From Catenovulum agarivorans DS-2 (lineage in GTDB: Bacteria; Pseudomonadota; Gammaproteobacteria; Enterobacterales; Alteromonadaceae), in assembly GCF_000568405.1 (NCBI RefSeq), contig NZ_ARZY01000037.1:1-45880 (forward strand): DNA of 45,880 nucleotides, in the 5' to 3' direction. This document shows positions 26,383 through 33,082 of the stretch, piece after piece (within the stretch, counting starts at the first letter, position 1; each line of letters starts with the position of its first letter). Below the pieces are notes generated by a model. It worked only from the letters and a program-made list of their open reading frames with translations. It made no database searches and was not told the origin of the DNA. Both the position numbers and the translations under genes were made by a program.

Positions 26383-26871
26383 TTAATCTACTTGATTAAT
26401 AAACTTGGTTAATCTGCTTTTAATTCGCGTAATGCGCACACCTATGTTGTTGCTATTGCTACCAATAATGTCGGCAATTTCTTCGTAGGTTTTCTCTTCC
26501 AAATACAGCAAAATTACCGCTCTATCTGTTTCGGAAAGGTGTTTAATCGCGTTGTACAACAAGTTAATTTCATCATTCGCAAAGGCCTTACTGTCGTCGA
26601 TAACCTCATCTGGCAAAGAATCGGAAACAATATGTTTGTCACCGTTTTTGCTCTGTTTGAGATAGGTTAAACAGACATTAAGCGTAATGCGGTAAATCCA
26701 AGTAGACCACTGGCATTGCTGATTAAAATTGTCTTTGCTGCGCCAAATTTGCAGGCAAACTTCTTGGTAATAATCTTCAAAATCTGCTTGGCTATTGGTA
26801 TAAGCCCGACAGATTTTGATGATGATGCCCGCGTGCGGCAGAATGTATTGCAGATAAAAGTCACTTCCCAT
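26383..26871 (-). CDS. ECF-type RNA polymerase sigma factor
   Basis: 162 residues, normal for ECF sigma factors. Region 2 spans ~1-75 (YILPHAGIIIKICRAYTNSQ, DFEDYYQEVCLQIWRSKDNF with the conserved acidic/aromatic -10-binding segment, WSTWIYRITLNVCLTYLKQ). Region 4 spans ~105-155 (HLSETDRAVILLYLEEKTYEEIADIIGSNSNNIGVRITRIKSRL), a helix-turn-helix for the -35 box. There is no additional domain. It is expressed with the membrane protein 15 bases downstream. Its target promoters and signal are unknown; no nearby gene shows an obvious ECF promoter that I can defend. Confidence 0.93.
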   Translation of the reverse strand: MGSDFYLQYILPHAGIIIKICRAYTNSQADFEDYYQEVCLQIWRSKDNFNQQCQWSTWIYRITLNVCLTYLKQSKNGDKHIVSDSLPDEVIDDSKAFANDEINLLYNAIKHLSETDRAVILLYLEEKTYEEIADIIGSNSNNIGVRITRIKSRLTKFINQVD

Positions 26872-31204: not shown

Positions 31205-31233
31205 TTGTCTATTGGCATTCAGATAGGTAAAAT
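31205..31233 (+). promoter_or_regulatory. Promoter of the avcI-like locus
   Basis: TTGTCT (31205-31210), 17 bases, TAAAAT (31228-31233). Four of six and five of six positions match the sigma-70 consensus. A transcript would start near 31240, giving a ~46-base leader before the 55-codon ORF; the deaminase could be read from the same promoter. Confidence 0.55.
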
Positions 31234-31285
31234 CGGCGCCTGAAAGCCATCTCTTAAACTTTATTTATTCTAACTAGGACAGGTT

Positions 31286-31453
31286 ATGAAAAATCTATAC
31301 TCTGAAAAACCTATTGTTGAGATATCAACGCCGAATAATAATAAATTGAGAGCAAGAAATGTCGTTGAGTGCTTTGCTAGTGCAAAATACAAAAAGCGCG
31401 AAGATGAGGCTAAACAAAAAGTTTACAAAGCAGCTAAAAGCTTGAATTGGTAA
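31286..31453 (+). CDS. Small ORF in the AvcI/DifV position upstream of the anti-phage deaminase
   Basis: 55 codons from ATG 31286 to TAA 31451-31453. A strong ribosome-binding site (AGGACAGG) stands about four bases in front. The product is basic and hydrophilic (starts MKNLYSEKPIVEI; the C-terminal half KYKKREDEAKQKVYKAAK looks like an amphipathic helix) and has one cysteine. In Vibrio and E. coli systems this site encodes a small RNA antitoxin that restrains AvcD/DcdV. I cannot tell whether here the RNA, the peptide or both act. It was too short for automated ORF lists. The stop is 48 bases before the deaminase start. Confidence 0.6.
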   Translation: MKNLYSEKPIVEISTPNNNKLRARNVVECFASAKYKKREDEAKQKVYKAAKSLNW

Positions 31454-31466
31454 CAATTTTTGTCAT

Positions 31467-31498
31467 AATCCTTTGATAACACTTTTTATTAAGGGATT
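31467..31498 (+). promoter_or_regulatory. Hairpin covering the deaminase ribosome-binding site
   Basis: AATCCTTT (31467-31474) can pair with AAGGGATT (31491-31498), eight pairs including one G-U, with a 16-base loop. The right arm contains AAGGGA, the ribosome-binding site of the deaminase at 31502. Folding would reduce translation, and an antitoxin RNA or ribosomes ending at the small ORF could change it. Confidence 0.45.
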
Positions 31499-31501
31499 AT
31501 T

Positions 31502-33046
31502 ATGGCTAAGCCTGCTTCAAAAATTACAAACCTCGCTCAACAATCACCAGTTCAATCTGAAAATCCAACAACAATACCAACCGTCACAACTATAAAGCAA
31601 AGACGCTCCCAAGAACTTATAATAGGGCTCTGCGGCACAGTTGGTTCTGGTGTGCGTAGCTTACAGAAAACGTTAGCTACAAAATTAAAGGAATCAGGCT
31701 ACTACGTCGAGCATATAAGACTTAGTGATTTGATTATTTCATCTCAAGATGATCCAAAAGCACTAGAAAATTTATCTGGTTTTGAACGATACGATACCCT
31801 ACAAAATCATGGCGATGAGTTAAGAAAAAAGCATGGCGGAAGTATCTTGGCTGAGCTAGCAATACGAAAAATAACTATTTCAAGAGAAACTAATTTTGGT
31901 TCCGGTGAATCCCAAAATGTAGTTCGAAATCAAAAAAAAGCTGCTTATATTATTGATCAGTTAAAACACCCTGACGAAATCGACTTATTTAAAGAAGCCT
32001 ATAGAAACAATTTTTATTTACTAGGCTTGCTTAGAACCGAAAATGAAAGGCGCTCTAACCTTAAAGAAGAACAGATTAGTGATTCTGAAATTGGGCAATT
32101 AATCGAACGTGATAGGAAGGCTTCTCAATCTCATGGCCAACATGTAGAAAAATCGCTGCATAAATCTGACTATTTCATCAGAAATATGACTAATGACAAG
32201 GCAATTGGTGAGTCCGTCATTAGGTTTATTAAGCTCATTCATGGCACAGAATTGATTACACCAACCAAAGATGAAACTGGTATTTATAGTGCATATTCAG
32301 CCTCATTAAAATCAGCGTGCCTATCTAGGCAGGTCGGAGCGGCTATTTGCGATGATGATGGCAATATTATTGCCACTGGGTGTAATGATGTCCCTAGATT
32401 TGGAGGCGGTTTATACAATGCGGAAAGTCCAATTGACCAACGCTGCTTCAACTATGGAAGGAAATGCTACAACGACAGTCATAAGTTGTTCTTAAAAAAA
32501 GAAATTGAACAAATTTTACAATCAAATAACGTTAGTGGCGCACCTGAAATCGCGACTCAAATATTAGAAGAATCCAAAGCAAAATCAATCATAGAGTACT
32601 CCAGAGCAATTCATGCAGAAATGGATGCGATAACAACTATCGCAAGAAATCCAAATACAAGCACTGTAGGTAAAACCTTATATTGTACAACATACCCTTG
32701 TCACGTCTGTGCTCGGCATATAGTTGCATCTGGAATTAAGAGAGTTGTATACATTGAGCCATATGAGAAAAGTTTAGCAACAAGCCTACATGGGGACACC
32801 ATTTACCACCCTGATAATCAGACCAATGAATCTAAAGTGTTACTTGAGAATTTTGAAGGGGTATCACCATTAAGATACTCAAAATTTTTCAAATATAGTC
32901 AACGAAGAAAAAACAGTTCAGGTGAATTAATAGACTATATTGTGACTGACTCAGGTCATGTAGACTTCCAACACTTAGATGGTTATGGGGATTACGAATT
33001 GAAAATAGTGGACTTGGTAAATGAAAAAATCCCAGATTCAGAATAG
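31502..33046 (+). CDS. avcD: Anti-phage dCTP/dCMP deaminase, AvcD/DcdV type
   Basis: 514 residues in two parts. Residues ~35-260 form a P-loop kinase-like domain (IIGLCGTVGSGVRSLQKTLA). The loop is degenerate: Val/Arg replace the usual GK[ST], so ATP binding may differ from a true kinase. Residues ~265-500 form a cytidine/deoxycytidylate deaminase domain with the zinc site His371-Ala-Glu373 (IHAEMDAITTIARN) and C400-H-V-C403 (TTYPCHVCARHIVASGIKRV), plus the preceding conserved CFNYGRKCYND. The known family (AvcD, DcdV) deaminates dCTP and dCMP during infection, depleting the nucleotide pool; it is held by a small RNA upstream. The upstream promoter, small ORF and hairpin fit that pattern. A terminator hairpin follows. 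Confidence 0.9.
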   Translation: MAKPASKITNLAQQSPVQSENPTTIPTVTTIKQRRSQELIIGLCGTVGSGVRSLQKTLATKLKESGYYVEHIRLSDLIISSQDDPKALENLSGFERYDTLQNHGDELRKKHGGSILAELAIRKITISRETNFGSGESQNVVRNQKKAAYIIDQLKHPDEIDLFKEAYRNNFYLLGLLRTENERRSNLKEEQISDSEIGQLIERDRKASQSHGQHVEKSLHKSDYFIRNMTNDKAIGESVIRFIKLIHGTELITPTKDETGIYSAYSASLKSACLSRQVGAAICDDDGNIIATGCNDVPRFGGGLYNAESPIDQRCFNYGRKCYNDSHKLFLKKEIEQILQSNNVSGAPEIATQILEESKAKSIIEYSRAIHAEMDAITTIARNPNTSTVGKTLYCTTYPCHVCARHIVASGIKRVVYIEPYEKSLATSLHGDTIYHPDNQTNESKVLLENFEGVSPLRYSKFFKYSQRRKNSSGELIDYIVTDSGHVDFQHLDGYGDYELKIVDLVNEKIPDSE

Positions 33047-33058
33047 TTCAAGATTTAT

Positions 33059-33082
33059 TTAAGCCCACTCGCTTGGGCTTAA
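33059..33082. terminator. Terminator after the anti-phage deaminase
   Basis: TTAAGCCCA (33059-33067) and TGGGCTTAA (33074-33082) form a perfect 9 bp stem with loop CTCGCT, then TTGTTTAATC. It may also serve the convergent xdhC gene. Confidence 0.75.

What the first reader, a model, noticed from the sequence alone, without database searches (positions are those of the whole stretch)
31205..33046. Complete AvcD/DcdV-type anti-phage locus between housekeeping genes
Seen: a 514-residue P-loop plus zinc deaminase fusion with HAE and PCHVC sites, a promoter, a 55-codon ORF and a hairpin, all on the plus strand and flanked by minus-strand genes. Known: this fusion architecture is the AvcD/DcdV deaminase that destroys dCTP/dCMP during infection and is restrained by a short RNA encoded just upstream. 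Inference: this is a chromosomal defence locus inserted beside DUF3297 and xdhC.
Basis: partly seen in the sequence, partly recalled or inferred. Interest (0 to 1): 0.8.

Follow-up and report, generated by a model that had tools for sequence, protein, structure and literature searches.

The report
Phage-defence deaminase with hidden small protein
This is a known kind of bacterial anti-virus gene that destroys a DNA building block, but the stretch in front of it, described in the literature as a non-coding RNA off-switch, also appears to encode a conserved small protein that no database we searched names.

Summary
Confirmed. window:31502-33046 encodes a 514-residue kinase-like plus deaminase protein above the cut-off of NCBIfam 'anti-phage dCTP deaminase' (502.9 against 400 bits): AvcD/DcdV. 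It is patchy: 14 of 295 family genomes hold the family; of 8 genomes in the genus only the window's own has this clade.

The 55-codon ORF upstream is not incidental. In a tree of 83 AvcD rows, the 40 with an upstream small ORF all lie in one 41-row clade; the 41st is cut at a contig end. The frame is under protein-level selection (5.8-7.2 sd above column shuffles, flanks flat). Its synonymous sites diverge less than those of avcD in 10 of 10 informative non-overlapping pairs, as expected if the RNA is constrained too. In about half of the long-spacer loci, strongly here, a hairpin covers the avcD ribosome site. The small protein has no convincing match in Pfam, NCBIfam, PHROGs, PADLOC or PDB.

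Reading: an AvcID-like toxin-antitoxin locus whose antitoxin transcript is both RNA and mRNA. The small protein's function is inferred. The 2022 founding papers were not readable.

The parts
31205..31233 (+). candidate promoter TTGTCT-17-TAAAAT, followed by a G+C-rich CGGCGCC (31234-31240)
   Evidence: Consensus scan, 9 of 12, weak alone; a -10-like box upstream is visible in many relatives, but that scan picked the best site per locus and is biased
31276..31279 (+). ribosome-binding site (AGGA) of the small ORF
   Evidence: Seen in sequence; 29 of 41 small ORFs have a match of 4 nt or more, against 18.9% of 460 other ATGs upstream
31286..31453 (+). conserved small ORF, 55 codons and stop; lies where the AvcI antitoxin is encoded in AvcID systems; codes an undescribed small protein
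   Evidence: Frame-specific conservation, lower synonymous divergence than avcD, confined to one AvcD clade, no database family
31376..31450 (+). last 25 codons of the small ORF: conserved lysine/arginine-rich helix, tryptophan before the stop
   Evidence: 35 of 41 distinct ORFs end in Trp (a Trp end was one of the criteria by which ORFs were picked); in those 35, Ala -6 in 28 by four codons and Leu -3 in 26 by five codons; predicted helix, residues 30-52
31465..31500 (+). hairpin, 15 bp stem and 6 nt loop, that holds the avcD ribosome-binding site AAGGG (31491-31495)
   Evidence: Fold; z -4.64 and ribosome-site pairing 1.00
31502..33046 (+). avcD/dcdV, anti-phage dCTP/dCMP deaminase, 514 aa
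   Evidence: NF041025 502.9 bits over cut-off 400, profile positions 1-437 of 437; PADLOC dCTPase, positions 136-551 of 630
31625..31651 (+). GLCGTVGSG loop of the N-terminal kinase-like domain (no Lys at the usual place of a P-loop, as recalled)
   Evidence: Sequence and alignment; fold matches adenylate-kinase-related proteins 3h0k and 3lw7
32612..32620 (+). HAE zinc/catalytic motif
   Evidence: Pfam dCMP_cyt_deam_1 residues 256-418, alignment
32696..32710 (+). PCHVC zinc motif
   Evidence: Same
33059..33082 (+). terminator-like hairpin after avcD
   Evidence: 3 such sites found in the region, 1.7 expected

Best explanation
An AvcD anti-phage locus that works like the AvcID toxin-antitoxin systems. 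AvcD, once freed, deaminates dCTP and dCMP and starves an infecting phage of dC nucleotides (established for relatives, inferred here). In uninfected cells it is held down by the short transcript made just upstream. That transcript carries two constraints at once: it encodes a conserved small protein of 51-72 residues, and its synonymous sites are also held back. The most likely reading is a bifunctional antitoxin unit, an RNA and the small protein it encodes acting in the same switch. When phage infection stops host transcription the unit is lost and AvcD acts. In about half of the relatives with a longer spacer, and strongly here, a hairpin over the avcD ribosome site would keep avcD translation low relative to the upstream unit. 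Shown here: AvcD identity, coding selection on the small ORF, lower synonymous divergence, linkage to one AvcD clade, the predicted hairpin. Inferred: enzymatic activity, inhibition by the RNA, loss at transcription shut-off, and any part of the small protein in inhibition.
For: AvcD. Coding selection: last 25 codons of 32 non-redundant W-type ORFs score +0.24 in frame 0, -1.07 and -1.37 in the other frames, 300 column shuffles mean -1.00 sd 0.17 max -0.48; with stops skipped z 5.8, the preceding 25 codons z 5.5, without the Trp codon z 7.5, four D-type ORFs z 3.4; 75 nt upstream (z -2.0, -0.2, 0.1) and 30 nt downstream (0.9, 1.0, -0.6) give nothing. pN/pS 0.18-0.63 in 5 close pairs, three of them sharing sequences. 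No conserved RNA fold inside the ORF in four groups, so the signal is not structural conservation in disguise. Synonymous divergence lower than avcD in 10 of 10 informative non-overlapping pairs; in five of these at most 0.4% of avcD windows of the same length are as low. Co-occurrence: the same picking rule, applied to all 102 locus rows, found the ORF in 55, none with AvcD under 38% identity; 3 of 295 family genomes hold it, all with clade AvcD; in the tree 40 of 41 clade rows and 0 of 42 others. Ribosome sites: 29 of 41. Hairpin: 16 of 32 long-spacer loci z below -2 against 13 of 116 control starts; site pairing above 0.8 in 15 of 32 against 9 of 116. RNA antitoxin, transcription shut-off and in vitro complex: PMC10511110, three sections read; its minimal functional AvcI of about 171 bases is close to the small ORF (168 nt here).
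Against: Published work calls AvcI a noncoding RNA, reports an RNA-AvcD complex in vitro, and reports that rifampicin but not spectinomycin activates AvcD in V. cholerae, which argues against a labile protein as the main inhibitor. AlphaFold confidence gives no sign of docking: the small-protein helix is less confident in the read-through fusion (83-84) than alone (95-96), though no coordinates could be inspected. Lower synonymous divergence could also come from codon bias in a short, highly expressed gene; in five of the ten pairs 3-34% of avcD windows are as low. 17 of the 32 long-spacer loci do not reach 0.8 pairing of the ribosome site, and the control starts are first ATGs of long ORFs, not annotated starts. 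No experiment was run. Whether the V. cholerae and V. parahaemolyticus loci carry the ORF was not checked.
Confidence: 0.62

Rival explanations
1. The antitoxin is RNA only (type III, like ToxIN), and the ORF is a chance open frame in it.
For: Published AvcI work: noncoding RNA, in vitro complex, transcription shut-off. An ORF of this length is not very rare by chance: 49 of 2000 shuffles.
Against: Frame-specific amino-acid conservation with synonymous codon variety, ribosome sites before the start, 40 of 41 clade rows against 0 of 42 others.
Confidence: 0.08
2. The small protein itself is the antitoxin (type II): it binds and inhibits AvcD, and the RNA is just its mRNA.
For: Directly upstream on the same strand in all 41 distinct loci; fast-evolving short protein with a conserved C-terminal helix; minimal AvcI length is close to that of the ORF.
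Against: Spectinomycin did not activate AvcD and RNA bound AvcD in vitro; synonymous sites are also held back; no docking signal.
Confidence: 0.15
3. The small ORF is a regulatory upstream ORF: its translation opens or closes the hairpin over the avcD ribosome site, setting AvcD dose.
For: Hairpin sequesters the site; spacers in one group (L073, L074, L075, L077, L078, L138, L139) are only 8-19 nt, the distance of coupled genes.
Against: In several relatives (L048, L050, L072, L120) the hairpin starts well after the stop codon, out of reach of a stopped ribosome; a pure uORF would not need a conserved C-terminal helix.
Confidence: 0.13
4. An ordinary metabolic dCMP deaminase.
For: Shares the zinc deaminase domain with T4 and human dCMP deaminases.
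Against: Kinase-like fusion, NF041025 over cut-off, patchy occurrence.
Confidence: 0.02

Closest known systems
AvcID (V. cholerae, V. parahaemolyticus, E. coli ETEC; PMC10511110, three sections read)
   Same: AvcD family, short unit directly upstream, unit length near the published AvcI; the ETEC H10407 p58 avcD lies in the same AvcD clade and has an annotated 61-aa hypothetical ORF 12 nt before it
   Different: Published AvcI is described as noncoding RNA; here the unit is under protein-level selection. The ETEC ORF lacks the terminal Trp and does not match the family profile significantly (E 1.5 among the candidate ORFs)
Anti-phage dCTP deaminase, NCBIfam NF041025 / PADLOC dCTPase
   Same: Over the NCBIfam cut-off with the whole profile matched; PADLOC positions 136-551 of 630
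   Different: No model of either library matched the small ORF family convincingly; at least 42 of 83 AvcD rows in the tree lack it
ToxIN-type (type III) toxin-antitoxin systems
   Same: Proposed logic: labile RNA lost at transcription shut-off frees a toxin (as said in PMC10511110)
   Different: No Rfam RNA found at the locus; the upstream unit is coding; the repeat arrays of ToxI (recalled) were not searched for here
PBCV-1 dCMP/dCTP deaminase (7fh4) and T4 dCMP deaminase (1vq2)
   Same: Deaminase half
   Different: Chains of 142 and 193 residues, too short for the kinase-like half

Membership tests
AvcD/DcdV anti-phage dCTP deaminase | N-terminal P-loop kinase-like domain fused to a zinc dC deaminase with HAE and PCxxC | tested here: met
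AvcD/DcdV anti-phage dCTP deaminase | Score over the curated family cut-off | tested here: met
   502.9 bits against 400
AvcD/DcdV anti-phage dCTP deaminase | Accessory, patchy distribution as expected of defence genes | tested here: met
   At E 1e-60: 14 of 295 (family), 5 of 369 (class), 10 of 227 (genus of G699), 16 of 343 (family of G701), 13 of 129 (genus of G700)
AvcD/DcdV anti-phage dCTP deaminase | Deaminates dCTP/dCMP and protects against phage | not testable with these tools
   Needs expression and phage assay
AvcID type III toxin-antitoxin | Antitoxin is an RNA encoded just upstream | tested here: inconclusive
   A short unit is there; lower synonymous divergence fits an RNA role; no conserved fold inside the ORF; inhibition not testable
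AvcID type III toxin-antitoxin | Antitoxin gene is noncoding (as described in print) | tested here: not met
   Protein-level selection on the upstream ORF. The ETEC system studied by others also has an ORF there, so the description, rather than this locus, may be what differs. I therefore claim AvcD membership and 'works like AvcID', not type III membership
Type II toxin-antitoxin | A small protein antitoxin binds the toxin | not testable with these tools
   Fusion model gives no sign of docking by confidence values; coordinates not available

The most novel reading that the evidence does not exclude
The AvcI antitoxin is a hybrid: one short transcript that is at once an RNA inhibitor and the mRNA of a co-inhibitor protein, both needed to hold the deaminase in an RNA-protein-enzyme complex. 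That would be a toxin-antitoxin arrangement that fits neither type II nor type III.
Probability: 0.3. Interest if true: 0.8.

Novelty: new variant of a known kind. Interest (0 to 1): 0.58.

Why it matters
AvcID is described as a type III system with a noncoding RNA antitoxin (PMC10511110, abstract and sections). If the unit that holds AvcD in check also encodes a conserved protein, its classification and the model of how phage infection releases the deaminase need a second look, and the small protein becomes a direct target for experiments. The coding test, the synonymous constraint and the clade-wide linkage point to a clear, cheap experiment: separate the RNA from the protein by recoding.

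Tried and rejected
Metabolic dCMP deaminase: rejected. Known RNA family: none at gathering threshold in the window. Conserved RNA fold inside the small ORF: four groups tested, none better than column shuffles. Docking of the small protein on AvcD through the read-through fusion: no support from confidence values; coordinates not available. Small protein in databases: 30 members against four libraries give only single-member matches, the best at E 0.002 (Pfam), and none in PADLOC; none in PDB at E 1. Clean insertion with an empty site: not found; the flanks are not adjacent in G004, and in G003 the xdhC side runs into different genes. What lies beyond DUF3297 in five relatives was listed but not used. 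Strict sigma-70 promoter pattern: no match in the window. The promoter survey of relatives picked the best-looking site and is not used as evidence. Second structural aligner: library not available. The founding papers (10.1038/s41564-022-01162-4, 10.1101/2021.03.31.437871, 10.1038/s41564-022-01158-0; identifiers recalled) are not held. I have a vague, unchecked recollection that the original work may have considered an ORF in AvcI, which lowers my confidence in novelty. Literature searches. What I saw of each paper: PMC10511110, outline and sections 4, 7 and 11 read, passages otherwise; PMC9934689, PMC9455884 and PMC12409362, passages only; other hits, listing only. 'orf' has no occurrence in the main text of PMC10511110 or PMC9934689; 'open reading frame' none in PMC10511110 or PMC9455884, and one in PMC12409362, about another island; PMC12409362 labels AvcI as ncRNA.

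Rows dropped: of 102 locus rows with an avcD hit, the tree used 87 with different open frames of 400 aa or more and without copies of the window (L109, L159), then 83 after near-identical ones were collapsed. Left out for length are, among others, L145 (has the ORF) and L058 (39% identity, frame interrupted, no ORF picked). L107 (G692), one of the 14 family genomes, gave no BLAST hit at 1e-20 and was not placed. Of the 40 small-ORF rows in the tree, 34 match the family profile at E 0.01 or better among the candidate ORFs: 29 are in the profile itself, 5 are held out (L039 and L071, near copies of members; L148 at 6.9e-11; L078 at 6.5e-4; L138 at 0.0095). Six (L051, L052, L053, L075, L080, L139) were counted by position and C-terminus only, in part with end patterns that I wrote after seeing them. 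AvcD of 38% identity or more without a picked ORF: 16 listed, of which L064, L082 and L109 are cut at a locus end. The coding test used 32 of 35 W-type ORFs (85% identity filter). Control for the hairpin: 116 first-ATG starts of other ORFs of 200 codons or more in the same loci. One search tested 14 pairs; 11 do not share a sequence, and one of these (L069-L070) is uninformative.

Full report
What is there. window:31502-33046 (+) encodes 514 residues. NCBIfam NF041025, anti-phage dCTP deaminase, matches over the whole profile at 502.9 bits, over the cut-off of 400. PADLOC calls it dCTPase at 9.9e-179. Pfam finds the zinc deaminase at residues 256-418. An AlphaFold model (pLDDT of ten-residue blocks mostly 75-96 over AvcD, with dips to about 60; mean 80.3 over the whole read-through chain) matches dCMP deaminases, including the PBCV-1 dCMP/dCTP enzyme, in one half and adenylate-kinase-related proteins in the other. 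No solved AvcD chain appeared among the 5 distinct PDB sequences matched at E 0.001 or the 50 fold matches shown.

Distribution. Over the family cut-off: 2 of 98 relatives including the window's own genome and 12 of 295 genomes of the family. In the genus (8 genomes) the other carrier, G005, has a distant AvcD (37% identity) that lies outside the clade and beside other genes. So the gene is accessory. The xdhC side is conserved with G004 and G003 up to window 33144, and the DUF3297 side with G004 up to 31048. In G004 these two sides lie on different contigs and the xdhC side runs on into other genes, so the locus sits at a synteny break and a simple insertion is not shown.

The upstream unit is a gene. 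A small ORF lies directly upstream of avcD in 41 distinct loci, 51-72 codons long when counted from the first ATG (40 of 41 start with ATG). They come from Pseudoalteromonas, Alteromonas, Shewanella, Vibrio, Photobacterium, Rahnella, Pantoea, E. coli, Klebsiella and others. ORFs were picked by length and C-terminal end, among them a tryptophan end; the same rule applied to all 102 locus rows picked 55, none of them with AvcD under 38% identity. 35 of the 41 end in tryptophan, and the stop that follows varies among TAA, TAG and TGA. In these 35, conserved alanines and a leucine are written with four or five different codons. With the last 25 codons anchored at the stop and ungapped, frame 0 scores +0.24 (mean BLOSUM62 of changed codons), against -1.07 and -1.37 in the other frames and -1.00 sd 0.17 in 300 column shuffles. 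Skipping stop-containing codons leaves z 5.8; the 25 codons before these give z 5.5; the 75 nt upstream of the ORF and the 30 nt after it give nothing. A ribosome-site match of 4 nt or more precedes 29 of 41 starts, chosen without regard to it, against 18.9% of 460 other ATGs (Fisher 1e-11).

The unit may carry a second, RNA-level constraint. In 10 of 10 informative pairs that share no sequence, the small ORF has a lower synonymous divergence than avcD of the same pair. In five of the ten (L040-L039, L043-L071, L049-L056, L038-L042, L122-L148) at most 0.4% of equally long avcD windows are as low; in L138-L078, L073-L074, L159-L032, L072-L120 and L034-L036 the fraction is 3-34%. Its nonsynonymous divergence is higher than that of avcD in 9 of the 10, and about equal in L040-L039. 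That pattern fits a fast-evolving small protein read from an RNA that is itself constrained. Codon bias in a short gene could also contribute.

Linkage. A profile of the small protein finds it in 3 of 295 family genomes: G000, G574 and G680, the three of the 14 AvcD-bearing family genomes whose AvcD is in the window's clade (L097 and L098 have the same AvcD match as L032 and L035). Ten of the other eleven are placed outside the clade in the tree; L107 was not placed. In the tree of 83 AvcD rows all 40 small-ORF rows lie in one 41-row clade (support of that fork 80; 96 for the 37-row core) whose 41st row, L082, starts at the contig end; 0 of 42 rows outside have it. Six of the 40 were assigned by position and C-terminus only. 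The ETEC H10407 p58 system lies inside the clade and has a 61-aa annotated hypothetical protein 12 nt before avcD; an E. coli ETEC AvcID was tested by others according to PMC10511110 (passage).

The hairpin. In the window a 15-bp stem (31465-31500) covers the avcD ribosome site. Among 32 loci with a spacer of 30 nt or more, 16 fold at z below -2 and 15 pair the site above 0.8; among 116 other ORF starts 13 and 9 do (Fisher 7e-6 and 2e-6). The other half of the long-spacer loci do not show it clearly. Where it is present, the arms differ in sequence between relatives while pairing persists (by eye). Seven loci of one group (L073, L074, L075, L077, L078, L138, L139) have spacers of 8-19 nt and no strong fold.

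How it most likely works. Relatives: AvcD depletes dCTP and dCMP after phage-induced loss of the labile AvcI transcript (PMC10511110, sections 4, 7 and 11 read). Here the corresponding region is a coding gene, and the published minimal functional length of about 171 bases is close to the length of the ORF (168 nt). I therefore read the unit as bifunctional. Against a protein-only antitoxin: spectinomycin did not activate AvcD, and RNA bound AvcD in vitro. Against an RNA-only antitoxin: the coding selection. The function of the small protein is not shown, and AlphaFold confidence gives no sign of docking.

Novelty. AvcD here is a member of a known family. The unrecognised part is the conserved small protein, with no convincing match in Pfam, NCBIfam, PHROGs, PADLOC or PDB and not mentioned as an ORF in the passages of the papers I could search. 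The founding papers were not readable, so I cannot exclude that the ORF was noted there.

Noticed in passing
L044:4919-4970 (Marinomonas fungiae): A G+C-rich hairpin followed by TTTTTT lies between the small ORF and avcD, an apparent intrinsic terminator that would make the upstream unit a separate short transcript.
   Followed up: partly
L003 (G005, same genus): A distant AvcD (37% identity) stands 12 nt after an ORF that looks like a type I restriction-modification methylase (recalled resemblance), without the small ORF: a different AvcD lineage in the same genus.
   Followed up: no
L105, L106, L125, L126, L127, L129, L141, L142, L143, L156: A deep clade of about 600-residue AvcD-like proteins (24-29% identity to the window in the aligned part), without a picked small ORF.
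   Followed up: no
L073, L074 (plasmids of about 4.6 kb), L077 (integrative element in E. coli C11), L080 and L081 (phage records): avcD on very small plasmids, an integrating conjugative element and sequences deposited as phage; the small ORF is clear in the first three, weak in L080 and not found in L081.
   Followed up: partly
L036: An avcD with small ORF in a genome bin labelled Simkania (Chlamydiota); either transfer across phyla or a binning error.
   Followed up: no
window:34215-38522: A 1435-residue protein with CBM6, CBM35 and thrombospondin type 3 repeats, probably a secreted polysaccharide-degrading enzyme.
   Followed up: no
window:41855-42997: A Fic-domain protein with DUF4172.
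   Followed up: no
window:25726-28356: A sigma-70 family factor (26383-26871) between two proteins without any Pfam match at E 1e-5.
   Followed up: no
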